A stretch of DNA of 64,000 nucleotides from Halobacteriales archaeon YIM A00013. GTDB taxonomy: Archaea; Halobacteriota; Halobacteria; Halobacteriales; Haloarculaceae. Of this stretch, positions 3,558 through 40,995 are shown one piece after another (the stretch's first letter is position 1; every line of letters starts with the position of its first letter). The position numbers were made by a program, and so were the translations under genes. The notes below the pieces were generated by a model, which was not told the origin of the DNA, searched no databases, and saw only the letters and a program-made list of their open reading frames with translations. Where the stretch lies: assembly GCA_025041195.1 (NCBI GenBank), contig JAKCFM010000001.1:1860001-1924000 (forward strand). Direction: 5' to 3'.

Positions 3558-3983
3558 ATGGTGCGGCATGTGCTCATTCCACACGATGGATCCGAACCGG
3601 CAGAGCGTGCACTCACACACGTGACCGAGGCGATGGCTGACGCCAGGGTGACGCTATTATGCGTAATTGATCCGTCTGCGGGCTTTGGTGCTGGTGCCGG
3701 CGCACCCGGCGCAGCAGAGGTGTGGTATCGATCCGAAAAAGAACGCATCGAAGATCGACTGACCGACGCACAGTCGGTGATCGAAGATCGAGGAATGAAC
3801 GCGCGGACAGAGGTGAAGATGGGCCAGCCCGCCCGGACAATCGTTGATCACGTCCACGACACTGACGTCGATCGGGTGGTGATGGGGAGTCACGGCCGAC
3901 GCGGCGTCTCTCGGCTCTTGCTCGGGAGCGTTGCTGAAACGGTCGTTCGTAACTCCCCGGTCCCGGTGACGGTGGTTCCGTGA
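3558..3983 (+). CDS. Universal stress protein UspA family
   Basis: A 141-residue single-domain UspA protein. The internal ATG at 3558 is chosen because MVRHVLIPHDGSEPAERAL is the canonical N-terminus; an upstream in-frame start at 3495 would add 21 residues with no family match. The ATP-binding signature is intact (GSHGRRGVSRLLLGSVAETV, the G-2x-G-9x-G pattern near the C-terminus). Members bind ATP and are induced by stress; the client process here is unknown. It is convergent with the DMT transporter, ending directly next to it. Confidence 0.93.
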   Translation: MVRHVLIPHDGSEPAERALTHVTEAMADARVTLLCVIDPSAGFGAGAGAPGAAEVWYRSEKERIEDRLTDAQSVIEDRGMNARTEVKMGQPARTIVDHVHDTDVDRVVMGSHGRRGVSRLLLGSVAETVVRNSPVPVTVVP

Positions 3984-4922
3984 TCAGTCATCAGCCGGTG
4001 GCTGTGACGTCGACCGGACGTCGGAAATCGCATTCCGGAGTGCCGCTCGCTTGAGAAGAATGAAGCCAATGAGCACGATCGTAAAGCCGAGCACGCCCTG
4101 GAGCGTGATTCGTTCACCGAGCACGAGAAAGCCCGAGATCGCCGCAACAGGCGGTGCAGTGTACGAAACAAGATTGATCTCGATTGGGCCAAGCCGTTCT
4201 AGCAACTCGAAGTAGATCAGAAAGCCGAGCGCTGAGGAGAAAATCGAGAGATAGCCGAGCGCTAGCAGTGCCTCACCCGGGTGAACGATCGAGCGCATTG
4301 ATTCACCGAGCAGGAAACTCAGTCCGTGCATCAACAGCGCACCCCCAACCATCGAGTAGGCCTCCATCGATTCGATCGGCAGCCCGGTATCGGACCGCTG
4401 GGTGAGCACGCTCCCGAGCGAAAACGAGAGCGTTGCGACAAAGATCAAACCGGTAGCGATCACGTCGCTGGCAAGGAGATTCGACGGATCTGGGTTCGTC
4501 AGAACGACCACGCCAATGAGCCCTAACAGCATGCCGAGCCAGCCAATCGGCGAGAGCCGCTCATCCGGGAGGAGGACGCGCGCACAACCGGTGGTCAACA
4601 CCGGATTGAGCGAGACGACGATGGCCGCAGTCGCGCTAGTCACCGCCGGGTCCTGTTCGCCGATGAACAACAGCGCGTGATAGATCGCGATCAGAAACAC
4701 CGACCCAATGGCAATTTGCCCCCACTGCGCTCGTCCTCGTGGAATCGGATCGTCGAGCACGTACCAGGCGTATCCGAGCATAAAGACGCCGGCAATGTCG
4801 TAGCGAAACGCGGCGAACAACACCGGTGGAAACCCAAGTTCGAGCCCAGCTTTGATCGCCATGAACGCAGAGCCCCACACCACTGCGAGAACGCCAAACA
4901 ATCCAAGGGTACGATAGGACAC
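3984..4922 (-). CDS. EamA/DMT-superfamily membrane transporter
   Basis: A 312-residue, highly hydrophobic protein with about ten predicted helices arranged as two EamA repeats. Typical features are VWGSAFMAIKAGL in helix 1, SLNPVLTTGCARVLL closing the first repeat, and YTAPPVAAISGFLVLGERI near the end of the second. The start is a GTG at 4922. This superfamily exports amino acids, purines or other metabolites; the substrate cannot be predicted. It lies between uspA (convergent) and the ABC transporter operon (same strand, 21 bases after that operon's stop) and could be read through from the operon. Confidence 0.88.
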   Translation of the reverse strand: MSYRTLGLFGVLAVVWGSAFMAIKAGLELGFPPVLFAAFRYDIAGVFMLGYAWYVLDDPIPRGRAQWGQIAIGSVFLIAIYHALLFIGEQDPAVTSATAAIVVSLNPVLTTGCARVLLPDERLSPIGWLGMLLGLIGVVVLTNPDPSNLLASDVIATGLIFVATLSFSLGSVLTQRSDTGLPIESMEAYSMVGGALLMHGLSFLLGESMRSIVHPGEALLALGYLSIFSSALGFLIYFELLERLGPIEINLVSYTAPPVAAISGFLVLGERITLQGVLGFTIVLIGFILLKRAALRNAISDVRSTSQPPADD

Positions 4923-4943
4923 GTGGACGCTCAGTGTGCTAAC

Positions 4944-6164
4944 TCACTCACAGTTGTGATCCCGGCAATGGGCGTCAGCGTGCAGATGACAGGACACGTG
5001 GTGTGGTGTCGTGTGCTCGTCTGGAGGAGTGGTTTCACAGACGCTCTCGAACGTCGTATCGAGCCGGTCGAGAGCCGTCGCTCGATCGCCGGCGTTGAGG
5101 GCCTCCGTCGCCGCCTCGATTGCTTGCGTGACCGTCGCTGAACAGCCTGTGCAATCGAATTCGTCCAGGGCAACCGATTCACCGCGTGCGATCTGGCTGC
5201 GGAGTCGAAAGATGGCTCGGTAGGTGGACTGATCGATATCGATATCGGCCGGTGGAATGAGTTTCGGACAGCGGGTGTGGAATCGACAGCCCGACGGTGG
5301 ATCGCTGGGTGATGGGAGCGCTCCCTCAAGATGATCGATCGACCGGTCGCGTTCGTTCGCGCGCGCACGTGGGACGCTCTCAAGCAACGCGCTCGTGTAG
5401 GGGTGCGCCGGCGCGTCGAACACCCGTTCGAGCGGCCCAACTTCGATGAGTTCGCCCAGATACATCACGGCGACACGATCACAGAGCGAGCTGACGACCG
5501 AAAGATCGTGGGTGATGCACAGATACGTCAGTTCCAGTTCGGCCTGGAGCTCGTCGAGCAGCGACAGGATCTGTGCCTGGACGGAGACATCAAGCGCACT
5601 CACTGGCTCATCGAGGACGATAAACGACGGTTCGAGCGCCAAAGCGCGAGCGATCGCCACGCGCTGGCACTGGCCGCCGGAGAGTTCATGGGGATAGCGG
5701 GTGGCCATCGCAGCCGACAGCTCGACCCGATCAAGCAGGTCACGAGCGCGGCTGTGGCGCTCACTCTCAGTTTCAATGTCGTTGACTACGAGCGGTTCGC
5801 AGATGATTTCCTCGACAGTCATTCTCGGATCGAGGCTCGAAAACGGCTCCTGAAAGACGATCGCTGTTTCCTGGCGAAAGCGGCGTCGCTCGGCTGCGCT
5901 CTGAGCAGCGATCGGTTGGCCATCGAACGCCACCGATCCGGCGGTGGGCTCCTGGAGTCCGAGCAGGAGCTGTCCGGTCGTCGATTTTCCACAGCCGGAT
6001 TCGCCCACCAACCCGACGGTCTCTCCGCGCTCAATCGAGAGCGAACAATCATCGACCGCAGTAATCGACGACCCTTCTCGGCCACGAAGCCGATCGAGAA
6101 CGGAGACGCCATCGGTGAATCGCTTTGTGAGCCCTGCTGCCCTGATGAGTGGCTGATCGGTCAC
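4944..6164 (-). CDS. Oligopeptide/nickel-type ABC transporter ATP-binding protein (DppF/OppF-like) with His/Cys-rich tail
   Basis: A 406-residue ABC ATPase. Walker A is GLVGESGCGKSTTG, the signature is ELSGGQCQRVAIARALA and Walker B is FIVLDEPVSALD. The oligopeptide C-terminal domain carries GCRFHTRCPKLI. The GTG start overlaps the preceding ATPase by 4 bases, indicating translational coupling. Unusually, the protein continues past the normal end with a DCTGC motif and then a 25-residue tail (382-406) holding seven His and three Cys. Such tails bind transition metals, so the cargo could be nickel, zinc or a metal chelate rather than peptides; this is inference. It is the last gene of the five-gene operon. 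Confidence 0.9.
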   Translation of the reverse strand: MTDQPLIRAAGLTKRFTDGVSVLDRLRGREGSSITAVDDCSLSIERGETVGLVGESGCGKSTTGQLLLGLQEPTAGSVAFDGQPIAAQSAAERRRFRQETAIVFQEPFSSLDPRMTVEEIICEPLVVNDIETESERHSRARDLLDRVELSAAMATRYPHELSGGQCQRVAIARALALEPSFIVLDEPVSALDVSVQAQILSLLDELQAELELTYLCITHDLSVVSSLCDRVAVMYLGELIEVGPLERVFDAPAHPYTSALLESVPRARANERDRSIDHLEGALPSPSDPPSGCRFHTRCPKLIPPADIDIDQSTYRAIFRLRSQIARGESVALDEFDCTGCSATVTQAIEAATEALNAGDRATALDRLDTTFESVCETTPPDEHTTPHHVSCHLHADAHCRDHNCE

Positions 6165-7336
6165 TGGTGATCACGCTCCATCTCGTGGGCGGCGCCAGGT
6201 TCGAGCGCCCTGTCCGGGTCGAACGCCCGGTCGGTGAGCACACAGCGGGCGCTGTGGCGATCAGTCTCGGCCACCGGGCGTTCTTCGGGATGCGCTCGAC
6301 AGTCGGTCATCGCTTGTGGACAGCGATCCGCGAAATAACAGCCCTCGGGGAGTTCATGGGCATGTAAGCCGGTCATTCGCCCAGAAAGCGACGGGGACGG
6401 TGTCGCAGTGGTGTCGAGATCCGGCACTGCACTGAGCAACCCCTGGGTGTAGGGATGCACCGGCGCGTCGAACAGCCGGTCGATCGGGGCACGTTCGACG
6501 AGTTCACCGGCATACATCACGCCTACGCGGTCGCTGTGATGGGCAACCACGCCGAGATCGTGCGTGATCAGCACGACCGACAGTCCAGTATCGTCCTGAA
6601 TCTCGTTCAGTAACGAGAGAATCTGTGCCTGTATCGTCACGTCGAGTGCTGTTGTCGGCTCATCCGCGAGCAACAGCCGCGGTTTGCCGGCAATTGCCTG
6701 GGCGATCATCGCTCGCTGGAGCATGCCACCGGAGAATTCGGTGGGATGCTGTTCGGCTCGCCTCGCCGGATCGGGAATGCCCACGCGTTCTAGGAGTTCG
6801 ATTGCCCGCTCGCGACTCGATTCGCTCACGAAGCTTCGGGTCGGCAGCAACGAATCACGAATGAGCGAGCCGAGGCCGTACGTCTCCGTTTTTGACCGCG
6901 TCGAACGGGGGCGGGCAGACGCCCGCTGTTGGACTTCGACGGCTTTGGCGATCTGTGAACCGACCGTTGCCGACGGATCGAACGACGACATCGGATCCTG
7001 AAACACCATGGCGATTTCGGTGCCACGGAGCGACCGACGGGCGTTCGCAGGGAGTGTTGTCAGATCGACAAACTCCCCGTCAACGTCGTGTTCGCCCGGC
7101 GTTGCCGCGAGCTCGGGAGTACGGAACCAGAGCGACCCGCCAGTTATCGTGCCGGCCGCTGGGAGCAATCCAGCGATCGAAAGCGCCGTCGCCGACTTTC
7201 CGGAGCCAGATTCCCCAACGAGACCGAACGACTCGCCAGCTTCGACGGTGAACGACACCGACTCGACGGCGTGAACGCGTCCGTCCTCGGTATCAAATCT
7301 GGCGGTGAGATCGCGAGCACGGAGGAGATCGGTCAC
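6161..7336 (-). CDS. Oligopeptide/nickel-type ABC transporter ATP-binding protein (DppD/OppD-like)
   Basis: A 391-residue ABC ATPase with Walker A GLVGESGSGKSATAL, signature EFSGGMLQRAMIAQAIAG, Walker B LLLADEPTTALD, and the C-terminal oligopeptide-type segment CYFADRCPQAMTDCRAHP. A stretch at about residues 130-165 (LRRSTRSKTETYGLGSLIRD-like) is an insertion between Walker A and signature, common in the DppD branch. The GTG start overlaps the permease stop by 4 bases. It pairs with the following ATPase to power the importer. Confidence 0.92.
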   Translation of the reverse strand: MTDLLRARDLTARFDTEDGRVHAVESVSFTVEAGESFGLVGESGSGKSATALSIAGLLPAAGTITGGSLWFRTPELAATPGEHDVDGEFVDLTTLPANARRSLRGTEIAMVFQDPMSSFDPSATVGSQIAKAVEVQQRASARPRSTRSKTETYGLGSLIRDSLLPTRSFVSESSRERAIELLERVGIPDPARRAEQHPTEFSGGMLQRAMIAQAIAGKPRLLLADEPTTALDVTIQAQILSLLNEIQDDTGLSVVLITHDLGVVAHHSDRVGVMYAGELVERAPIDRLFDAPVHPYTQGLLSAVPDLDTTATPSPSLSGRMTGLHAHELPEGCYFADRCPQAMTDCRAHPEERPVAETDRHSARCVLTDRAFDPDRALEPGAAHEMERDHQ

Positions 7337-8355
7337 GGGCCACCACCCCCATCAGCATCGATACCGGGATCAAGCGCATCTCGAAACCAGTCGCCGATGA
7401 GATTGACGGCGAACACGGCGAACACGATCGCAAACCCGGGAATCGTCGTCACCCACCAGGCGGTCGAGAGCAGATCACGGCCTTGACTCACATCGAAGCC
7501 CCACGAGAGCGTCGTCCCGGTAAAGCCCAGAAACGCCAGCGCGCTCTCTAGCAAGATGATGGTTGCGACCTGGATCGTGGCTAGCACGAGAATCGGGGTA
7601 AGCGCGTTGGGGAGCACGTGACGGCGGAGTATGAACCGGTCGCTCGCGCCGACGCTCCGGGCTGCGAGAACGTATGGGGCGTTCGCCAGCCCCATCGCCT
7701 CGCCGCGGGCAATACGAGCCAGCCAGACCCAGTTGACGAGACCAACCACCAGCACGACCGTCCCCGGAAGAACGACGTGTGCGGGCATTGCTGGCGTGAT
7801 CCCGAGGACAACCCACGGATCCGGAATGCGAACTGTGGCGGTGCCAAACAGTCCGACCAGTGCAACCGCCAGCACAAGCGACGGAAACGCAAGCATGACA
7901 TCACCGCTGCGCATCAACGCATCGTCAATCCGGCCGCCGTAGTAGCCAGCGATCAGTCCAGTGGGAACGCCAATGATCGCGGCGACTGTCGTTCCGAGGA
8001 GCCCGACGAGCAACGACGTGCGAGCGCCGTACAGAACGCGAGAGAGCATATCCCGACCGAGTGCATCCGTTCCGAGCGGGTGGGTCCACGTGGCGCTGAT
8101 TGTCGTCGTTTCAGTCACCGTTTTGACCTCACCATCCACAAGCTGTGAGCTGGTCTGTTCGGTTTGCCCGCTGAACCCGATCGGTGGACGAAGCTTCTCG
8201 TCCAGCTGTTGGGTGGTGGGATCATGCGGTGCAAGCAGTGGCGCACAGAGTGCGCCCACGACGAGGAGCCCGAACAGCACGACGCCAAGCTTCGGGAGCA
8301 ACTGTCGACGGAGTGTGCGTCGAAGGGCGCGACGCGTCCGAGGCGTGAACATCAT
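7333..8355 (-). CDS. ABC transporter permease, DppC/OppC-like
   Basis: A 340-residue inner-membrane permease with an N-terminal helix, an extracytoplasmic loop (about residues 60-100) and a five-helix transmembrane domain of the binding-protein-dependent type. LGTDALGRDMLSRVLYGART is the standard DppC opening motif, and ARGEAMGLANAPYVLAARSVGASD matches the EAA loop that contacts the ATPases. The start ATG overlaps the previous gene by 4 bases. It forms a heterodimer with the DppB-like protein. Confidence 0.92.
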   Translation of the reverse strand: MMFTPRTRRALRRTLRRQLLPKLGVVLFGLLVVGALCAPLLAPHDPTTQQLDEKLRPPIGFSGQTEQTSSQLVDGEVKTVTETTTISATWTHPLGTDALGRDMLSRVLYGARTSLLVGLLGTTVAAIIGVPTGLIAGYYGGRIDDALMRSGDVMLAFPSLVLAVALVGLFGTATVRIPDPWVVLGITPAMPAHVVLPGTVVLVVGLVNWVWLARIARGEAMGLANAPYVLAARSVGASDRFILRRHVLPNALTPILVLATIQVATIILLESALAFLGFTGTTLSWGFDVSQGRDLLSTAWWVTTIPGFAIVFAVFAVNLIGDWFRDALDPGIDADGGGGP

Positions 8356-9341
8356 TCCATCGACACCTCCGGATCAAGCCGTGTGTAAATGCCATCGACA
8401 ACGGCGTTGATCACCACGAAGCCGACGCCGATCACGATGAGACAGCCCTGCACGACCATCCAGTCGCGGTCATTGATCGCGTCTATCAGTAACGATCCCA
8501 GTCCGTGCCAGGCGAACACCCGCTCGGTAATCACCGCACCGCCGATCAGCGTGCCGAGCTGGAGCCCAAGCACCGTCACCACTGGGACGAGCGCGTTTCG
8601 GAGCACGTGCTGATAGCGGATCACGACCGGTGGGAGCCCCGAGGAACGAAGCGTCCGCACGTACGATTGGTCGAGCTCCTCGACAACACCACTGCGTGTG
8701 AGCCGCGTGAGGAGTGCGGTGAAATACGTCCCAAGCGTCACCGCCGGCAGTGCCAGATGAGTGAGCCAGCGCCCAGCCAACTGTGGCGCATACAGCACGT
8801 CGATCGCTGAGATCACCTCGCCATTCGCACGCGCCGGTCCACTCACCGGAAACCACCCCATTCCGACGGAAAACACCAGGACCAGCACGAGCCCGAGCCA
8901 GAAGTTCGGCGTGCTGATGCCGACGAGCGAGAAGCTCGTGGCGGCGTAATCGGTTGGCGTGTGTCTGCGTGTCGCGCTCACGACGCCGAGTGGAATCGCG
9001 ATCACAATTGCGACGATCGTTGCTGCAATCGCCAGATCGAGCGTCTGTGGCAACCGACTGGCAAGGAGCTGTCGAACTGACGTGTTGTTCACATAGGAAT
9101 GGCCCAGATCGAGACGGAGCAGATCGCCAAGATAGGTTGCGTACTGCACGTGCAGGGGCTCGTGCAACGACAGTTCTCTGGCGATCTGGGCTTTGAGCTG
9201 TGGACTTGCATCCAGGGGGGCGATCGTCGTCACTACCGAGCCGGGCGTGCTGTATCGCAATAGAAAGACGACGGTAACGATCGCCCAGACGACGACCACC
9301 CCGTGGCCGAACCGCCGGGCGAGAAAGCGACCTGAAACCAT
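8352..9341 (-). CDS. ABC transporter permease, DppB/OppB-like
   Basis: A 329-residue permease with about six helices. The N-terminal FLARRFGHGVVVVWAIVTVVF and the following PGS-containing loop are typical of DppB. The second half shows YVRTLRSSGLPPVVIRYQHV, the EAA-type ATPase-contact loop, and ITERVFAWHGLGSLLIDAI. It starts 3 bases after the solute-binding-protein stop and overlaps the next permease by 4 bases, so the operon is tightly coupled. Confidence 0.92.
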   Translation of the reverse strand: MVSGRFLARRFGHGVVVVWAIVTVVFLLRYSTPGSVVTTIAPLDASPQLKAQIARELSLHEPLHVQYATYLGDLLRLDLGHSYVNNTSVRQLLASRLPQTLDLAIAATIVAIVIAIPLGVVSATRRHTPTDYAATSFSLVGISTPNFWLGLVLVLVFSVGMGWFPVSGPARANGEVISAIDVLYAPQLAGRWLTHLALPAVTLGTYFTALLTRLTRSGVVEELDQSYVRTLRSSGLPPVVIRYQHVLRNALVPVVTVLGLQLGTLIGGAVITERVFAWHGLGSLLIDAINDRDWMVVQGCLIVIGVGFVVINAVVDGIYTRLDPEVSME

Positions 9342-9344
9342 CGA

Positions 9345-10934
9345 TCAGTTCGACCGAGCGATGGTGGCCGCCTCGATCCGTTCGTCGCGCCGGGCCGTCC
9401 ACTCAAGGCGCTGGTCAACGCCGTAAACGCTGAACTGCTGATGGAGAAAGATCCACGGTGCCAGATCGTGATACTCGCTGTTTACCGCCGACAGCAGCTC
9501 CTGACGTTTGGACTGATCGGTCGTTTCTAATGACGTTTGGACCTCCTCGTCTAGCGATTCGGCACAGAACGAGCTCAGCACCTCGCCACAGCCGAGCGTT
9601 GGTATGAGCGTTTTCGTCGCGTCAAACGTCGCATTCCCCCAGCCGATGAGATACATGTGTGGCATCGTCGACCGATCGCCGTCGGTGAGCTCGCCGATGA
9701 GCGCGTTCGTTTCGCGCTGTTGCAGGTCGGCGGAGACGTTCGAAAGCGAATCGATCATGCCAACGACTGCCTGGGCGATCTCAACGTCTTTGAGATATCG
9801 ACCCTGTGGACTGTGGAGCGTCACCGACGTTCCGGCATGGCCACTTTCTTCGATGAGTTGTTCAGCGCGGTCGGGATCGTGCGGATACGGCTCGATCGAG
9901 TCGTCAAAACCGACGAACTCCTCGAGCGTTGGTTGGCCGGTCCCCTTGCCAAATCCGTTCAGAATGTCCTCGACGATGCTTTCGAGATCGACGGCGTAGT
10001 TCATCGCCTGTCGGAACTGTTGGCTATCGAACGGTTCGACGTCGGATCGCATCGCCACGTAGAGAATGCGGGTGCTCGGTGCGGTCGCAAGTGCTGAAGC
10101 GTCGTTGGATTCAATCCGCTGCACCTCTTGTGGCGGGACGTTGACGACGAGATCCGATTCACCCTCAAGCAGTGAGTTCACACGCACGCTGGCCTCTGTT
10201 GCGGCATCGATCGTCAGTGCCGTTGGCCCAGGTGAGGGCCCCCAGTACGACGAAAACGGCTCGAACGCCACGCGAGTGTTCGCCTCGTACGTCGTCTGTT
10301 TGAACGGCCCCGTGCCGTTCATCTCCTGTGTCACCGTCCCCTCTCCCGATTCTGTCACCCACTGTTTTTCGACGATATCGCAGTAGGTCGCTAGCTGATT
10401 GACGACAAGCGGATTTGGTCCTTCAGTTATCACGTCGACGGCATGCTTGCCGTCGACCACTTCTGCATCCGTGATCCCGGAGAGCTGATCGCGCTGGGCG
10501 CTTTCAATGCCAACGGATGGATCGACGATCCGACGAATCGAAAACACGACATCAGCTGGCTGCAGCGTCGAGCCGCTGTGAAAGGAGACGTCCTCGCGCA
10601 GCGTGAATCTGACCCGGCCGGCCTCCTTGCGGTCATATCCAGTCGCCAGCCGCTCAGTCACTGCACCAGATGCATCGCGAGCAAGCAGTCCCTCGTAGGC
10701 CTGTCGAACGACGTTCTCCGTCGGGGTCGAGCGGTGATTGTGTGGATCGAGCGTGTCCGGTGGTGTCCCCTGCGTGACCGTGACGGACAGCTCGTCACCC
10801 GCTGTCGTCGTGTCGGTCGATTGCTCGGGGGTGTCGGACGAACAGCCCGCCACCGACACCGTTGCCATGACCGTCCCGAGTGAACGGAGCACCGTTCGAC
10901 GATCGACCGTCCGCCCACCATCCATATCAGACAT
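9345..10934 (-). CDS. ABC transporter solute-binding lipoprotein, family 5 (peptide/nickel type), Tat-exported
   Basis: 529 residues from the ATG at 10934, chosen because a TATA box (10956-10964) puts the transcript start almost on this codon; an ATG at 10925 is also possible. The N-terminus has a twin-arginine motif (DRRTVLRSLG) and a lipobox ending VAGC, so it is a Tat-exported lipoprotein, the usual haloarchaeal arrangement. The body matches SBP family 5: LDPHNHRSTPTENVVRQAYE near the start, NGTGPFK in the middle, FRQAMNYAVD later. It captures the substrate for the four downstream transport genes. The promoter holds a palindrome shared with the gene at 15437-16393. Confidence 0.92.
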   Translation of the reverse strand: MSDMDGGRTVDRRTVLRSLGTVMATVSVAGCSSDTPEQSTDTTTAGDELSVTVTQGTPPDTLDPHNHRSTPTENVVRQAYEGLLARDASGAVTERLATGYDRKEAGRVRFTLREDVSFHSGSTLQPADVVFSIRRIVDPSVGIESAQRDQLSGITDAEVVDGKHAVDVITEGPNPLVVNQLATYCDIVEKQWVTESGEGTVTQEMNGTGPFKQTTYEANTRVAFEPFSSYWGPSPGPTALTIDAATEASVRVNSLLEGESDLVVNVPPQEVQRIESNDASALATAPSTRILYVAMRSDVEPFDSQQFRQAMNYAVDLESIVEDILNGFGKGTGQPTLEEFVGFDDSIEPYPHDPDRAEQLIEESGHAGTSVTLHSPQGRYLKDVEIAQAVVGMIDSLSNVSADLQQRETNALIGELTDGDRSTMPHMYLIGWGNATFDATKTLIPTLGCGEVLSSFCAESLDEEVQTSLETTDQSKRQELLSAVNSEYHDLAPWIFLHQQFSVYGVDQRLEWTARRDERIEAATIARSN

Positions 10935-34879: not shown

Positions 34880-35077
34880 AGCGTGTTCAGTCGGTATGCC
34901 GCCCCGACCGTCGGTGCACAGGCGTTCGCCTCCAACGACGCCTCCCGTTCATTGCTCGAATCGCTCGGCTTCGAAAAAGAGGGACAGCGCAGAAACTTCG
35001 CGTTCGTCGGCGGCGAGTACCGCGATCTGGTCTGTTACGGGCTTGATCGCTCGGTCTGGCTAGCATCAACACCGTGA
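34880..35077 (+). pseudogene. Truncated GNAT acetyltransferase remnant
   Basis: The frame reads FASNDASRSLLESLGFEKEG then GGEYRDLVCYGLDRS, the C-terminal quarter of a RimJ/RimL-type GNAT N-acetyltransferase (acetyl-CoA-adjacent NxxS-LLESLGF and final beta strand). The N-terminal acyl-CoA binding part is missing; upstream is AT-rich unrelated DNA with a stop at 34844-34846. It overlaps the 3' end of the convergent response regulator by about 43 bases. It is most likely a leftover after an insertion or deletion. Confidence 0.75.
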
Positions 35078-35616
35078 CGAAGCAGACTGATGAACGCGCC
35101 ATCGTCCATGGCAGCCGTTCGTTCATCAAGATCGCGTTGGAGCGCCTCGATATCGGCATCAATCGCTTCGATCGCTTCGATGTCACGTCCATCTGAGCTG
35201 TACAGCGACGCTCGCCGCTCAAGGAGCTCAAACAGCTGTTGTTCTTTCTCAAGATACGACTCCTGATCGAGCATCTGATCGACGGCACACAGCAGTTCGT
35301 CTTTGGTGATTGGCTTCGTAATCGCCGCATCCGCGCCAGCCTCGATCAGATCGAAGTTCGACTCAACCGCTGTGGCCATCACGATCTTACACTCGAACTC
35401 GCGCTCGCGAACGTGTTCGATCACTTCGCGGCCGGTCATCGATGGCAACAGCCGATCGAGCACAATAACGTCGACGTCCGCATCAACCTGCTCAAGGGCC
35501 CCATCGCCGGTCTGTGCCGTCCGGATCGTGTGTGAATCGGACAGCCAGTGGCGGTAAATCTCGATCAGCGACGGCTCGTCTTCGACGAGCAAAACAACGG
35601 GCGAGGAATCACTCAT
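35035..35616 (-). CDS. Response regulator with HalX domain
   Basis: 193 residues from ATG 35616. Residues 1-115 form a receiver domain: PVVLLVEDEPSLIEIYRHWL, phosphoacceptor Asp in DVIVLDRLLPSMTGREVIEH, and the conserved Lys in AAITKPITKDEL. The C-terminal part (about 120-193) is the haloarchaeal HalX domain, an alpha-helical output module with coiled-coil character and no DNA-binding motif. No cognate kinase is adjacent. The longer in-frame start at 35667 would add a non-conserved hydrophobic stretch. Confidence 0.9.
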   Translation of the reverse strand: MSDSSPVVLLVEDEPSLIEIYRHWLSDSHTIRTAQTGDGALEQVDADVDVIVLDRLLPSMTGREVIEHVREREFECKIVMATAVESNFDLIEAGADAAITKPITKDELLCAVDQMLDQESYLEKEQQLFELLERRASLYSSDGRDIEAIEAIDADIEALQRDLDERTAAMDDGAFISLLRHGVDASQTERSSP

Positions 35617-35725
35617 TGCTCCGCAATTACACGCCAAAATGATTAAGATTCCGATTATCCAATCCAATCAGCATCGTTGTATTAGTAGTTAACAGCTAGT
35701 GGAATTTTCAGATCGCCTGGAGGAA

Positions 35726-36340
35726 TCATGGACCCGACGTCCGATCGAGCGCACGAAGCGCCGTTGCAGCGTCTTCAACGGCCAGCAGATACGACCGGGC
35801 TCGTTCGGGATCGTCGATCGTTGCAGCCTGGGTAGCAAACCGGGTAATCGTCTGCTCAAGGGCTGTTCTGGCTTCCGTGAGTGAACTTGCGCCTGTGGGT
35901 GGTGATTCGCTGGGCGGCTGTGGTGTGACGGGTTCGTTTGCGGCGGGGCTCGATCGATCGACTGACCGATCCGTGGGAGTTTCCTGCGCCCCAGATGCCG
36001 CCGTCGAATCGGATGGTGGCTGGTGTGTACCATCGCCGGGCGCCGTCGGTTCGGTGGGTGTGGCCTCTGTGGGTGGCGGCGACGCGGCGGGCTCGGCGTT
36101 CGATCCATCGGCTCCCTGCGCGTCGGCCCCAGAGTGATCTTCAGTGTGACACGTGGGGCAAAACTCCGTCCCATCGTGGCGGAACAGCGGATCGCCACAG
36201 GTGTCACAGTGCGTGTCAGTCATCGTCGCCCCCTGTAAGAGGAGTTCACTCATGCGGGCCGTCGCCTCCCGTTTTTTCTGATCGCGTTCGAACTGGCGTT
36301 TCAGCTTTTCGCGCTCGGCCTGCTCGTCGAACTCGCTCAT
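35726..36340 (-). CDS. Sjogren/scleroderma autoantigen 1-like zinc-ribbon protein
   Basis: 204 residues. The N-terminal charged helix (EREKLKRQFERDQKKREATA) is followed by MSELLLQGATMTDTHCDTCG and a zinc ribbon CxxC-x15-CxxC (CDTCG to CPTCH). This is the archaeal SSSCA1 family signature. The C-terminal half is Pro/Thr/Glu rich low complexity with a final helix (about 155-200). Biological role is unknown; zinc binding is inferred from the cysteines. Confidence 0.87.
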   Translation of the reverse strand: MSEFDEQAEREKLKRQFERDQKKREATARMSELLLQGATMTDTHCDTCGDPLFRHDGTEFCPTCHTEDHSGADAQGADGSNAEPAASPPPTEATPTEPTAPGDGTHQPPSDSTAASGAQETPTDRSVDRSSPAANEPVTPQPPSESPPTGASSLTEARTALEQTITRFATQAATIDDPERARSYLLAVEDAATALRALDRTSGP

Positions 36341-36557
36341 ACACCATCAAATGTGATCGATCTCAAAAAGGACTCCGACCACTGCCGCTCAGCCGCCAAA
36401 CCGAACGATGGTAACGAACCACACGATAATTGGAAGCCACTGGTAGCTTGTTCTGTTCGTTCAAAAAGAGATGGTAACACTGAACAGTTTACGTGCTACC
36501 AGTGGTGAAATGGCGCTTTTCGACACGTTTAACCAGCCCGTGAGACGATTTTGTGAT

Positions 36558-37472
36558 ATGGTAAAAGTAAGCGTTGTCGGTGCAGCGGGGACGGTCGGTG
36601 CGGCGGCTGGATACAACATCGCACTTCGAGATGTGGCCGACGAACTGGTGTTTGTCGACATTCCGGACATGGAAGACACGACGATCGGCCAGGCAGCCGA
36701 CGTGAACCACGGTGGGGCCTACGATTCGAACACCACGATTCGACAGGGCGAGTACGAAGACACCGCTGGCTCCGATGTCGTGGTGATTACCGCTGGCATT
36801 CCACGCAAGCCCGGACAGACTCGACTTGATCTGGCTGAGGACAACGCTCCGATCATGGAGGATATCGGCGCGTCGCTGGCCGAGCACAACGACGACTTCG
36901 TGACGATCACCACCTCCAACCCGGTCGATCTGCTCAACCGTCACCTCTATGAGGCCGGTGATCGGGCACGCCAGAAGGTGATCGGCTTCGGTGGGCGACT
37001 CGACAGCGCTCGGTTCCGGTACGTGCTGGCCGAAGAGTTCGATGCGCCCGTCCAGAACGTCGAAGCGACGATTCTCGGCGAACACGGCGACGCACAGGTG
37101 CCTGTCTTCTCGAAAGTCCGCGTCGATGGCACCGATCCGTCGTTCACCGACGACCAAAAAGAGCGGCTGCTGGAGGACCTCCAGGAGAGCGCAATGAACG
37201 TGATCGAACGGAAAGGCGCCACCGAGTGGGGACCAGCCACCGGCGTCGGTCATATGGTCGAAGCCGTGCTCCGTGACACCGGCACCGTTCTCCCCGGCTC
37301 GATCGTGCTCGACGGCGAGTTCGGCCACGACGGTGTTGGACTTGGCGTGCCGGTCAAGCTCGGCAACAACGGCGTCGAAGAAATCGTCGAATGGGACCTT
37401 TCGGAGCACGAACAGCAACTGCTCGATGCGGCCGCAGAGAAACTCACCGAGCAGTATCAGTCGATCGCCTGA
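36558..37472 (+). CDS. mdh: Malate dehydrogenase
   Basis: 304 residues from ATG 36558, with a TATA-like GTTTAACC about 30 bases upstream. The NAD-binding motif [20 protein letters not shown], the [14 protein letters not shown] active-site loop (the Arg after the Gln selects dicarboxylates), the [10 protein letters not shown] motif, and the catalytic His in [13 protein letters not shown] are all present. It is the haloarchaeal LDH-like tetrameric MDH, oxidising malate to oxaloacetate in the TCA cycle. The rhodopsin follows after 127 bases with its own promoter. Confidence 0.95.
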
Positions 37473-37487
37473 TGCGACCCTAACGTA

Positions 37488-37576
37488 TTATAATTTTTAC
37501 CATACCTTGAGCGATCGGGCGAGCCGCCGGAGTAACACCGGTGTCGTCCGTCAGATCGAAAGGTCAATTATAAGTC
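37488..37576 (+). promoter_or_regulatory. mdh terminator and leaderless rhodopsin promoter
   Basis: TTATAATTTTTACC after the mdh stop looks like a terminator T-run. A TATA box ATTATAAG at about 37568-37575 is 25-30 bases before ATG 37600, so the opsin message is predicted leaderless, and the start is well supported. No bacterio-opsin-type upstream activator site was recognised. Confidence 0.6.
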
Positions 37577-37599
37577 AGACAGTCTCGATAGCTGGTTCG

Positions 37600-38355
37600 A
37601 TGGCAGTGTTGCTACAGACTAGTGCGATCGAAAGCGGCCAGCTCTGGTTTCTCATCGGGACGGTCGCGTTTCTCGCTGGGATGGGTGCCTTCGTGCGTGT
37701 CGGCGCACGGACCTCGACTGGACGGCGCCTCTCAGTGTGCTCGATCGGCCTGGCGTTCGCCGGAACCGTGACGTATCTACTGTTGAGTCTGGGCTATGGT
37801 TCGCTACCGGTCACGTTCGGGGACGTGTCACGGCGAGTCTACTGGCTCCACTATCTGGACTGGCTGGTGACGTTCCCGCTGGTGTTGCTCGCGCTGGGGA
37901 TCATCGCGGGCGCAAGCCGCCGGACGGTCGGGGCGTCTATCGGGTTTTCCATCTCGCTTGTCGTGTTCGGGTTGACGAGCGCGCTCACCACACAGACGCT
38001 GGCCGGATACGACGCGCGTACCGTCCGCTATGGGCTGTTCGGACTGAGCGTCGTTGCGCTCCTTGCGGTCATCATCATCCTTGTACGGCCGATTTCGCGG
38101 TCAGCCGCCCAACAGGCGACAGAGGTTGCGCTGGTGTACAGCATGCTCAGAAACGTCGTCATCGTGTTGCTCGTGTTCTATCCGCTCATCTGGCTGGGGA
38201 CCCAGCTGCTCGGTGTCGTGCCAGCAGTCATCGCGCTCGCGGGCTATCTGCTGTTGGATCTGTTGCTCAAACTGGGCGTTGGCTGGCTGGTGCTCAGCAA
38301 TCGAACCACACTGGACGATGCGTCCGATAGCAAGCCCAGAACGCTCGGCTCTTAA
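37600..38355 (+). CDS. Divergent microbial rhodopsin (bacteriorhodopsin family)
   Basis: 251 residues, seven predicted helices. Helix C is YWLHYLDWLVTFPLVLLALG, aligning with bacteriorhodopsin (BR) residues 79-98, and helix G is LLLDLLLKLGVGWLVLSNR, with the retinal-binding Lys (K224 = BR K216) and D220 (= D212). D87 equals the proton acceptor D85; Y59, W88, P93, Y194 and W198 are kept. Changed: H84 (R82), F92 (T90), A98 (proton donor D96), S117 (D115), L191 (retinal-contact W182), A212 (release-group E204). It is probably a retinal protein, but not a standard proton pump. Start is set by the TATA box. Overlaps the ferredoxin gene tail-to-tail by 4 bases. Confidence 0.85.
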   Translation: MAVLLQTSAIESGQLWFLIGTVAFLAGMGAFVRVGARTSTGRRLSVCSIGLAFAGTVTYLLLSLGYGSLPVTFGDVSRRVYWLHYLDWLVTFPLVLLALGIIAGASRRTVGASIGFSISLVVFGLTSALTTQTLAGYDARTVRYGLFGLSVVALLAVIIILVRPISRSAAQQATEVALVYSMLRNVVIVLLVFYPLIWLGTQLLGVVPAVIALAGYLLLDLLLKLGVGWLVLSNRTTLDDASDSKPRTLGS

Positions 38356-38597
38356 GGAATCAGCTGTTTGCCGTCGTCGTCATACACAGTGATCGCATCA
38401 ACCGGACAGACGCGGGCGGAGAATTTGGCGTCGAGTTCGGCATCCGCTGGTATGTCGCGAACGAACAGGTCCTCGTCGGTCTCGGTTCCGTCGAGCAAAA
38501 CCGCCTTGCCGGCAGTCTCGTCGGCCTCGAATCCGTCCCATTCTGCAACACACTGAAACATCCCGATACAGGTGTCACGGTCGTACTCGATCTTCAT
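38352..38597 (-). CDS. Ferredoxin, single-cluster (3Fe-4S/4Fe-4S type)
   Basis: 81 residues from ATG 38597 (an upstream start would add nine). DRDTCIGMFQCVAEWDGFE supplies two Cys with CX5C spacing, and ARVCPVDAITVYDDDG supplies CP. Three Cys near one cluster fit a 3Fe-4S-type ferredoxin, or a 4Fe-4S cluster with a non-Cys ligand (the site between the first two Cys is Met/Phe). It is an electron carrier; the partner is unknown. Convergent with the rhodopsin gene. Confidence 0.88.
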   Translation of the reverse strand: MKIEYDRDTCIGMFQCVAEWDGFEADETAGKAVLLDGTETDEDLFVRDIPADAELDAKFSARVCPVDAITVYDDDGKQLIP

Positions 38598-38757
38598 GCC
38601 CTCAGATTGGTAAACCCCACCCAAAGGCCTGTCGTTGGTCGCACCTTCGACAACCCGGGAACTACCCTACTCACTCGCCGCTGACACAGTTCGCTCCTTG
38701 AGGAAGGAGACTTAGCGCCTGAAAACCCTTAAACCCGATACCGAACTACCACCGATA

Positions 38758-40995
38758 ATGGAAGTTGCATCGGTTCCCGAGATTCCGTCCTGGCTCCCCG
38801 AGCTGCTCGCAGACGACGGCGTGACGGAGCTGTATCCGCCCCAAGCTGCAGCCGTGGATGCAGGTGTCACCGCTGGCGAAAGCGTGGTGGCAAGCGTGCC
38901 AACGGCCAGTGGAAAAACCCTCGTTGCAACGCTCGCGATGCTCTCAAGCATCGAACGGGGTGGAAAAGCGCTGTATATCGTTCCGTTGCGTGCGCTCGCG
39001 AGCGAAAAACACGAAGAGTTCGAACAATTCGAAGCGTACGGCCTCTCCATCGGCGTTTCAACCGGCAATTACGAATCCAGCGGCGCGGGGCTCGCCGATG
39101 CTGATGTGATCGTTGCCACCAGCGAGAAGGTGGATTCGTTGCTCCGAAACGACGCCCCGTGGATGGACGAGCTGTCATGTGTCGTCACCGATGAGGTCCA
39201 CCTGGTCGATGATGACCACCGTGGACCAACGCTTGAGGTGACGCTTGCCCGACTGAAAGGGCTCGCCGCCGATCCCCAGATCGTGGCGCTTTCGGCGACG
39301 GTTGGGAACGCTGGGGAGGTTGCAACCTGGTTGGACGCAGCCCTCGTCGAGTCGGACTGGCGACCGATCGAGCTGCGGGCTGGCGTCCACTACGGACAGG
39401 CCGCACATTTTGACGACGGCTCCACCGAAGAGCTGCCGGTGACCAGCGGCGAGAAACCGACCGAAGCGATCGTCCGTGACACCCTCGATGACGGCGGCTC
39501 GACGCTCGTGTTCGTCAACTCCCGCCGCAACGCGAAAGGCGCGGGAAAACGGCTCGCCGGCGTCGTTGGCGAACAGTTATCTCCGGACGAGCGAAACGAG
39601 CTTGCAGCAATCGCCGCCGAAATTCGTAGCGTGAGCGACACGCAAACGAACGAGGAGCTGGCGAACGCCGTCGAACACGGTGGTGCATTCCACCACGCCG
39701 GCCTGTCGCGTCGCACGCGATCACTCATCGAAGATGCGTTCCGAGACCGGCTGTTGAAAGTGGTTGTGGCCACGCCAACGCTTGCGGCCGGCGTGAACAC
39801 GCCGTCGCGTCGTGTTGTCGTTCGTGACTGGCGCCGCTACGATGGCTCCGTCGGTGGCATGGCACCGCTATCCGTGCTTGAGGTCCACCAGATGTTCGGA
39901 CGAGCGGGACGACCCGGGAGGGATCCGTATGGAGAGGCGCTGTTGCTCGCAAACAGCCACGACGAGCTCGATGAGCTGTTCGAGCAGTACGTGTGGGCGT
40001 CCCCAGAGCCGGTCGAATCGAAGCTGGCTGCAGAACCCGCGCTGCGGACACACGTGTTGTCAACGGTCGCCTCCGGGGTCGCACGAACGCGTGATGGACT
40101 GCTGGCGTTTCTCAAAGAGACGCTGTATGCGACACAGACCGAGAACGCAGCGCATCTCGAATCGGTCATGGACGACTGTGTCGCGTATCTGGATGCGAAC
40201 GAGTTTCTGACGTTCGACCGATCGGACGGCTCGCTGGCTGCGACGAGTCTTGGACACACCGTTTCGCGGCTCTATCTCGATCCGATGAGTGCCGCCGAAA
40301 TCGTCGACGGCCTGCGTGGAGCGAGCGAGCCGACGCCGCTCGGACTGTATCATCTCGTCGCTCGGACGCCCGATATGTACGAGCTGTATCTCAGATCGGG
40401 AGATCGTGAAGCATACACGATGACGGCCTACGAGCGGGAAACGGAGTTTCTCGGCGCGATGCCCTCCGAGTTCGAAGACGCCAGATTCGAGGAGTGGCTC
40501 TCGGCACTCAAAACCGCCAGACTGCTCGAAGACTGGGCGAGCGAACGCGACGAAGACCGGATCACCGACGACTACGGCGTTGGTCCCGGAGATATTCGCG
40601 GAAAGGTCGATACCGCCGAGTGGCTGCTCCGGGGGGCAGAACAGCTCGCAGTTGAGCTTGATCTCTCCGTCGGGCCGGCGATCCGCCGGGCGAGAAAGCG
40701 GGTTGAGTACGGCGTCAGCGAGGAGCTGATCGATCTCGCCGGCGTGCACAACGTCGGCCGAAAGCGGGCGCGTCGCCTGTATGACGCCGGTATCACCACG
40801 CGAGCGGATCTCAGATCGGCTGCAAAAGCGACCGTCCTCGGCGCAGTTCGTGGCCGGACGAAAACCGCCGAGGGTATTCTTGAGGCTGTCGGTCATCCCG
40901 ATCCCTCGATGGATGGCATAACTGCACCCGACGCCACCACGTCGGAGAGCTCACCAACAGCTGATGGCCAATCGACGCTAGGTGATTTCCCGTGA
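38758..40995 (+). CDS. hel308: Hel308 (Hjm) DNA helicase
   Basis: 745 residues. Helicase superfamily 2 motifs: [13 protein letters not shown] (Q motif), [15 protein letters not shown] (Walker A), [18 protein letters not shown] (DExH), LSATVGN (motif III), and [17 protein letters not shown] (motif VI). The C-terminal helix-hairpin-helix ([20 protein letters not shown], about residue 660) and the ratchet domain are present. It is the archaeal Hel308 3'-5' helicase acting at stalled replication forks. Its stop overlaps the start of the Cgi121 gene by 4 bases. Confidence 0.96.

What the first reader, a model, noticed from the sequence alone, without database searches (positions are those of the whole stretch)
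37600..38355. Divergent rhodopsin with retinal Lys and both counterions but no proton donor, no helix C Arg, no retinal Trp
Seen: seven helices, K224, D87 and D220 at the places of BR K216, D85 and D212. BR R82 is His here (H84), D96 is Ala (A98), T90 is Phe (F92), W182 is Leu (L191), D115 is Ser (S117) and the release-group Glu E204 is Ala (A212). Known: R82 and W182 are nearly invariant across archaeal rhodopsins, and D96 is the pump's reprotonation donor. Inference: this may be a new sensory or slow-photocycle rhodopsin, a shunted pump or a non-photoactive opsin. No transducer gene is adjacent, its neighbours are mdh and a ferredoxin, and its promoter is its own leaderless TATA.
Basis: partly seen in the sequence, partly recalled or inferred. 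Interest (0 to 1): 0.85.

Follow-up and report, generated by a model that had tools for sequence, protein, structure and literature searches.

The report
Bacteriorhodopsin descendant orphaned of retinal synthesis
In the hyphae-forming salt-loving archaea around Halocatena and Actinarchaeum, a former light-driven proton pump has lost its pumping residues, and most of these genomes have lost the genes that make its pigment retinal, yet the retinal-holding site and promoter are preserved; how such a light protein works without home-made retinal is now a testable question.

Summary
Window 37600-38355 encodes a 251-aa type-1 rhodopsin (PF01036, E 2.9e-33) with K224, D87 and D220 kept and R82H, D96A, T90F, W182L, D115S and E204A changed. 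It is not sequencing error: all seven genomes of the genus carry an intact, purifying-selected orthologue. All have His at position 82; no other complete family opsin examined does. W182 is L or F in five of six distinct sequences. The clade is well supported (100/99), outside HR and SR. Synteny suggests descent from a bacteriorhodopsin: in a sister genus a canonical BR sits at the same locus beside crtY and brp; Halocatena marina keeps only crtY there; the window neither. The window's genome has no detectable Brp/Blh, lycopene cyclase or phytoene/squalene synthase, so no known route to retinal. Yet all eight Schiff-base-site residues and the promoter are conserved. Best reading: a non-pumping H-type rhodopsin using imported retinal; a retinal-free opsin is the main rival. 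A 2023 paper calls the orthologue halorhodopsin; residues and tree contradict that. Arg82-to-His rhodopsins are known as H-type Alt-rhodopsins, so this is a new variant, not a new kind.

The parts
37600..38355 (+). Opsin gene, 251 aa, H-type (Arg82->His), Bac_rhodopsin family
   Evidence: ORF and translation; PF01036 E 2.9e-33; orthologues in all 7 genus genomes
37561..37602 (+). Conserved leaderless-type promoter block: ...GTCAATTATAAGTCAGACAGTCTCGATAGCTGGTTCGATG, TATA element at about 37568-37574
   Evidence: Alignment of 120 nt upstream of six orthologues; the block is conserved while sequence further upstream is not, even where the gene has moved
37849..37851 (+). H84, place of BR R82; invariant in the clade, absent from the other complete family opsins examined
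37858..37860 (+). D87, place of BR D85 (counterion); halorhodopsins have Thr here
37891..37893 (+). A98, place of BR D96 (proton donor lost); Ala in all clade members
38170..38172 (+). L191, place of BR W182; Leu/Phe in five, Trp in Halocatena marina
38257..38271 (+). D220-xxx-K224, places of BR D212 and K216 (second counterion and retinal lysine)
38332..38349 (+). Conserved cytoplasmic C-terminal hexapeptide KPRTLG, identical in five of six orthologues while the preceding ~12 residues vary
36471..37472 (+). Malate dehydrogenase (likely start ATG 36561), upstream neighbour; synteny anchor
   Evidence: Pfam Ldh_1_N/C; synteny
38352..38624 (-). 4Fe-4S single-cluster ferredoxin, downstream neighbour; synteny anchor
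   Evidence: PF13459 E 7e-20; synteny
38758..40995 (+). Hel308-type archaeal helicase; synteny anchor
   Evidence: PF00270, PF21280; synteny
37473..37599 (.). 127-bp gap where the sister genus has crtY and brp and Halocatena marina still has crtY; nothing of either is left here
   Evidence: tblastn with both genes finds nothing significant here; crtY and brp present in L038, crtY alone in L041

Best explanation
The gene encodes an H-type rhodopsin that descends from a bacteriorhodopsin and no longer pumps. SHOWN: the pump's proton donor (D96), release groups (E194, E204) and Arg82 switch are gone across the genus; most of these genomes have lost retinal synthesis (the window's genome, its whole known carotenoid route); the Schiff-base site (Y57, D85, W86, T89, Y185, W189, D212, K216) and the promoter are kept. 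INFERRED: the protein still forms a Schiff base with retinal taken up from neighbouring carotenoid-rich halophiles, as proposed for Saccharibacteria. INFERRED: with His at 82 and Leu/Phe at 182 it has a blue-shifted, slow, weakly coupled photocycle without useful pumping, acting as a light-gated proton leak or as a light sensor that signals through a partner bound at the conserved KPRTLG tail rather than through an Htr transducer.
For: Intact gene in 7/7 genus genomes, dN/dS 0.14-0.36 by NG86. Schiff-base site 8/8 kept while other BR-invariant transmembrane positions are kept 20/46 (Fisher p 0.003), the same figure as SRI and unlike the K-less opsins L076/77/79/80/81 with 1-4 of 8. H84, D87, D220 and K224 are the only charged or titratable residues lying at the Schiff-base positions in mid-membrane. 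Promoter conserved even after relocation. The orthologue in YIM 93972 is reported from proteomic data, as 'halorhodopsin' (PMC10067837; it is the only PF01036 gene in that genome). No PF15461 in five of seven genomes; no PF00494 in three of the six genus genomes tested; no PF18916 in the window's genome. Precedents for rhodopsins without known retinal synthesis: PMC7734400, PMC9296517. Engineered R82Q-type and W182F substitutions make a related pump leaky and alter its photocycle (PMC4657025).
Against: No retinal uptake system is known here and no chromophore has been seen. The polyene/ring side of the pocket is eroded (W138->F/L, W182->L/F, A215->L/V) in exactly the genomes without brp. Retinal-pocket positions as a whole are no better conserved than other invariant positions (10/18 against 18/36 in the window). 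R82H+W182L itself has not been measured; the mutant data are for R82Q and W182F in another protein.
Confidence: 0.5

Rival explanations
1. A retinal-free opsin. After retinal synthesis was lost, the protein took on (or kept) a function of the apoprotein, such as a membrane scaffold or a receptor for another ligand, as proposed for haloarchaeal opsin-related proteins (ORPs). The lysine stays because it forms a buried salt bridge with D87 and D220.
For: Five of seven genomes lack Brp/Blh and three of the six tested lack phytoene synthase, yet the gene is kept. W138 and W182 are lost only in the brp-less genomes; Halocatena marina, which has brp, keeps both. Published survey: haloarchaea with only ORPs also lack crtY and brp (PMC4915679).
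Against: ORPs lose the lysine and most of the Schiff-base site (1-4 of 8 kept in five sequences here); this clade keeps 8/8 over a branch of more than one change per site.
Confidence: 0.27
2. Retinal is still made in the cell by an unrecognised route, and the rhodopsin is an ordinary but unusual photoreceptor or weak pump.
For: Aurantimicrobium minutum lacks known genes yet contains retinal (PMC7734400). Three other genomes of the family hold canonical HR or SR genes without Brp/Blh (G045, G062, G114). The window's genome has a carotenoid-oxygenase-type enzyme (PF03055, E 3e-107; nearest solved structure 6vcf).
Against: The window's genome lacks even a phytoene/squalene synthase homologue, so no carotenoid precursor is made by a known route. 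The oxygenase is absent from three genus genomes that keep the opsin and from G045, G062 and G114.
Confidence: 0.13
3. A decaying relic of bacteriorhodopsin with no present function.
For: Faster evolution and weaker constraint in the window/Actinarchaeum lineage (stem about 1.1 changes per site; dN/dS 0.26).
Against: Intact in seven of seven genomes, promoter conserved, product reported by proteomics in one strain, Schiff-base site selectively kept.
Confidence: 0.07
4. A halorhodopsin, as the Nature Communications 2023 paper labels the orthologue.
For: Published statement for strain YIM 93972; Ala at position 96, as in HR.
Against: Asp, not Thr, at position 85, and Thr, not Ser, at 89; the HR clade, including a true HR in Halocatena marina (L124), is separate with 100/99 support.
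Confidence: 0.03

Closest known systems
H-type Alt-rhodopsins (PMC9601134, 2022)
   Same: His replaces Arg82 in a type-1 rhodopsin that keeps DxxxK in helix G; three Halobacteriota Alt-rhodopsins were counted there, possibly including a Halocatena sequence (their table could not be opened)
   Different: The main H-type group described there is of giant viruses. This clade is BR-derived by synteny, also lacks W182 in most members, and lies mostly in genomes without retinal synthesis
Haloarchaeal bacteriorhodopsin (e.g. deltarhodopsin 4fbz, H. salinarum BR)
   Same: Fold, counterions D85/D212, lysine, and in the sister genus the same chromosomal locus
   Different: R82, D96, E194, E204 and W182 lost; no crtY-brp alongside
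Haloarchaeal opsin-related proteins, ORPs (PMC4915679, 2016)
   Same: Opsin genes kept in genomes that lack crtY and brp
   Different: ORPs have lost the lysine and most of the pocket; this clade keeps the lysine and the Schiff-base site
Halorhodopsin
   Same: Ala at the D96 place
   Different: Asp instead of Thr at the D85 place; separate clade
Sensory rhodopsins I and II
   Same: Lack D96 and the BR release groups; similar overall divergence from BR
   Different: No adjacent htr, R82 kept in SRs, separate clade
Retinal-borrowing rhodopsins of Saccharibacteria (PMC9296517)
   Same: Rhodopsin in genomes without retinal synthesis
   Different: Those are outward proton pumps; this one has lost the pump residues

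Membership tests
Type-1 microbial rhodopsin | Bac_rhodopsin profile over the whole protein, seven helices | tested here: met
   PF01036 E 2.9e-33, residues 14-237; helix pattern consistent, though the AlphaFold model is low-confidence, pLDDT 45
Type-1 microbial rhodopsin | Helix-G lysine for retinal | tested here: met
   K224, invariant in the clade
Type-1 microbial rhodopsin | Binds retinal and absorbs light | not testable with these tools
   Needs expression with retinal
Bacteriorhodopsin (outward proton pump) | D85 acceptor and D212 | tested here: met
   D87, D220
Bacteriorhodopsin (outward proton pump) | D96 proton donor | tested here: not met
   Ala in all clade members
Bacteriorhodopsin (outward proton pump) | R82 and E194/E204 release group | tested here: not met
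   His; Q/H; A/L/T
Halorhodopsin | Thr-Ser-Ala motif at 85/89/96 | tested here: not met
   Asp-Thr-Ala
Halorhodopsin | Falls in the HR clade | tested here: not met
   Tree, HR clade separate at 100/99
Sensory rhodopsin I/II | Adjacent htr transducer gene | tested here: not met
   Neighbours mdh and ferredoxin; sole MCP elsewhere or absent
Sensory rhodopsin I/II | Falls in the SR clade | tested here: not met
Haloarchaeal opsin-related protein (ORP) | Loss of the retinal lysine | tested here: not met
   K224 present
Haloarchaeal opsin-related protein (ORP) | Genome lacks crtY and brp (when no canonical opsin is present) | tested here: met
   No PF15461 or PF18916 match in the window's genome
H-type Alt-rhodopsin | His at the Arg82 place with the helix-G lysine kept | tested here: met
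   H84, K224; definition from PMC9601134
H-type Alt-rhodopsin | Identity with the Halobacteriota sequences counted in 2022 | not testable with these tools

The most novel reading that the evidence does not exclude
An expressed, lysine-bearing opsin that works without home-made retinal in an organism with no known carotenoid synthesis: either as a dark, retinal-free protein that nevertheless keeps the whole Schiff-base site, or with a different imported aldehyde chromophore in its widened pocket. One candidate, in the genomes that hold it, is the product of the apocarotenoid-cleaving-type oxygenase.
Probability: 0.25. Interest if true: 0.82.

Novelty: new variant of a known kind. Interest (0 to 1): 0.6.

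Why it matters
It offers a stepwise natural experiment in which a proton pump appears to have lost its pumping residues and its retinal-making neighbours, and then part of its pocket, without being discarded. It makes two questions testable in culturable archaea: whether opsins have a function without retinal, and whether haloarchaea live on borrowed retinal. It also corrects a published label: the 'halorhodopsin' of the hyphae-forming archaeon YIM 93972 is not one. A natural departure at both R82 and W182 is also of use for understanding pump-to-channel conversion.

Tried and rejected
Sequencing error: rejected, six distinct orthologous sequences share the changes. Halorhodopsin, SRI, SRII: rejected by residues and tree. 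Phototaxis through Htr: the only MCP of the genome belongs to an H-NOX/Che cluster and three opsin-bearing genomes have none. Viral relatives: one scan of viral contigs gave none. Retinal through the PF03055 oxygenase: not excluded, but three genus genomes with the opsin lack it. 'No brp means no retinal' as a rule: weakened, because three other genomes of the family have canonical HR/SR genes without brp. AlphaFold with five rows gave pLDDT 45 and was not used for pocket geometry or a fold search; the further aligned rows came from genome searches, which are not on that tool's list of allowed sources, so no second job was run. Strict sisterhood with the sister-genus BR at the same locus: not shown and not rejected (AU p 0.39), so descent from that BR rests on synteny.

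Full report
What was checked. The ORF at 37600-38355 is intact, 251 aa, and a full-length match to Pfam Bac_rhodopsin (E 2.9e-33).

It is a real, conserved clade. The window's genome has no other rhodopsin. All seven genomes of its genus carry an orthologue; named records identify the group as Actinarchaeum halophilum YIM 93972 (89% identity), YIM A00010, Halocatena pleomorpha and Halocatena marina. Two of the seven (G040, G041) share one contig length and position and were counted as one sequence, giving six distinct ones. All have His at 82 and Ala at 96; W182 is Leu, Leu, Leu, Phe, Phe and, in H. marina, still Trp. A DNA pattern for the His helix C was found only in this genus among 391 genomes of the class; that pattern would miss some codings, but none of the other family opsins aligned with a readable position 82 has His there. 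The clade has 100/99 support and is separate from HR and SR. A smaller tree puts it next to the BRs; union with the sister-genus BR L009 is neither shown nor rejected (AU p 0.39). Pairwise dN/dS is 0.26 between window and YIM 93972 and 0.14-0.18 within the H. pleomorpha group.

Where it came from. The gene sits between malate dehydrogenase and ferredoxin/Hel308 in the window, YIM 93972, YIM A00010 (ferredoxin not detected there) and H. marina. In sister genus g6 (G052) a canonical BR with R82, D96, E194, E204 and W182 sits at the same place. There, between BR and mdh, lie lycopene cyclase (crtY, 49% identical to the H. marina one) and brp (PF15461, E 2.5e-68). In H. marina only crtY remains between mdh and the opsin (TIGR03462 E 3.7e-37); in the window 127 bp remain and neither gene is detectable. 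Inference: a BR locus lost brp, then crtY, while the opsin stayed. In H. pleomorpha and G043 the gene has moved to another locus.

No known route to retinal. Across the family 118 of 146 genomes have Brp/Blh, and comparing the two lists, all of these also have a rhodopsin (129 of 146). In this genus only H. marina and its near twin have it, beside separate BR and HR genes. Two of 7 in the genus against 116 of 122 rhodopsin-bearing genomes elsewhere gives Fisher p 3e-5; genomes are related, so this is descriptive. The window's genome and YIM 93972 also lack lycopene cyclase and, like YIM A00010, any phytoene/squalene synthase. The published description says YIM 93972 lacks bacterioruberin genes, in particular lycopene elongase. 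Assemblies are 94-99% complete and independent genomes agree, so absence is likely real. Counter-evidence: three other family genomes carry canonical HR/SR genes without Brp/Blh (G045, G062, G114), so missing brp alone does not prove missing retinal. The window, YIM 93972 and H. marina hold a carotenoid-oxygenase-type enzyme nearest to 6vcf, absent from the other three distinct genus genomes.

What selection has kept. Of 54 transmembrane positions invariant in BRs, the eight around the Schiff base are all kept in the window protein against 20 of 46 elsewhere (Fisher p 0.003). SRI shows the same pattern; five K-less opsins from the same family keep 1-4 of 8. By contrast the polyene/ring side of the pocket is eroded in the brp-less genomes and almost intact in H. 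marina. The promoter block from about -40 to the ATG is nearly identical in all six sequences, including moved genes. A C-terminal KPRTLG is identical in five of six while the preceding residues vary. The YIM 93972 product is reported from proteomic data under the name halorhodopsin; since that genome has a single PF01036 gene it is most likely this protein, and Asp at 85 plus the tree rule the name out.

How it most likely works. Established knowledge: without D96, R82 and the release pair, efficient outward proton pumping is not expected. In a related pump, R82-place and W182-place substitutions give passive proton conductance and altered photocycles (PMC4657025). The selective retention of K, D, D, W, T, Y, Y, W argues that an aldehyde chromophore is still bound; since the cell cannot make it by a known route, import is the simplest source. 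Rhodopsins in genomes without known retinal synthesis have precedents (PMC7734400, PMC9296517). Whether the output is a proton leak or a signal through a partner at the conserved tail is inference. Htr-type signalling is unlikely: the sole MCP belongs to an H-NOX/Che cluster and three genomes have no MCP.

Novelty. Arg82->His rhodopsins are known as H-type Alt-rhodopsins (214 counted in 2022; three Alt-rhodopsins of any type from Halobacteriota), and opsins in genomes without crtY/brp are known as ORPs. The combination found here, a BR-derived H-type opsin keeping the full Schiff-base site in genomes with no known route to retinal, with intermediate stages at the same locus, was not found described in the papers searched. 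I therefore rate it a new variant of a known kind.

Noticed in passing
L153 (G000:C1:1384000-1395000), 3704-10850: The only MCP gene of the window's genome (two N-terminal membrane spans, no HAMP found) follows an H-NOX haem-NO-binding protein and precedes CheW, CheA, CheC and CheD: a gas-sensing chemotaxis-type cluster, in a lineage whose close relative YIM 93972 is reported to have lost its archaellum. Its output is unclear.
   Followed up: partly
L152 (G000:C1:2500500-2514500), 6251-7684: A carotenoid-oxygenase-type enzyme (PF03055), nearest solved structure 6vcf, in a genome with no detectable phytoene synthase: what does it cleave?
   Followed up: partly
L040 (CP071306.1), 10001-10753: The protein reported as halorhodopsin in YIM 93972 (PMC10067837) is most likely this H-type opsin, not a halorhodopsin. 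It also has Gly at the place of the otherwise conserved BR P186.
   Followed up: yes
L072, L073, L074, L078: Three genomes of the family (G045, G062, G114) hold canonical sensory or halorhodopsin genes but no Brp/Blh and no PF03055 oxygenase.
   Followed up: partly
L076, L077, L079, L080, L081: K-less opsin-related proteins in G080, G111 and G122, with His or Arg (one unaligned) at the place of the retinal lysine.
   Followed up: no
L067, L068, L069, L065: Short (about 120-146 aa) proteins with a lycopene-cyclase-like domain in G041-G044, apart from the opsin locus; function unknown.
   Followed up: no
window 35726-36340 (-): Small protein with an Auto_anti-p27 domain (PF06677) beside a response regulator (35035-35667), syntenic across much of the genus.
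   Followed up: no
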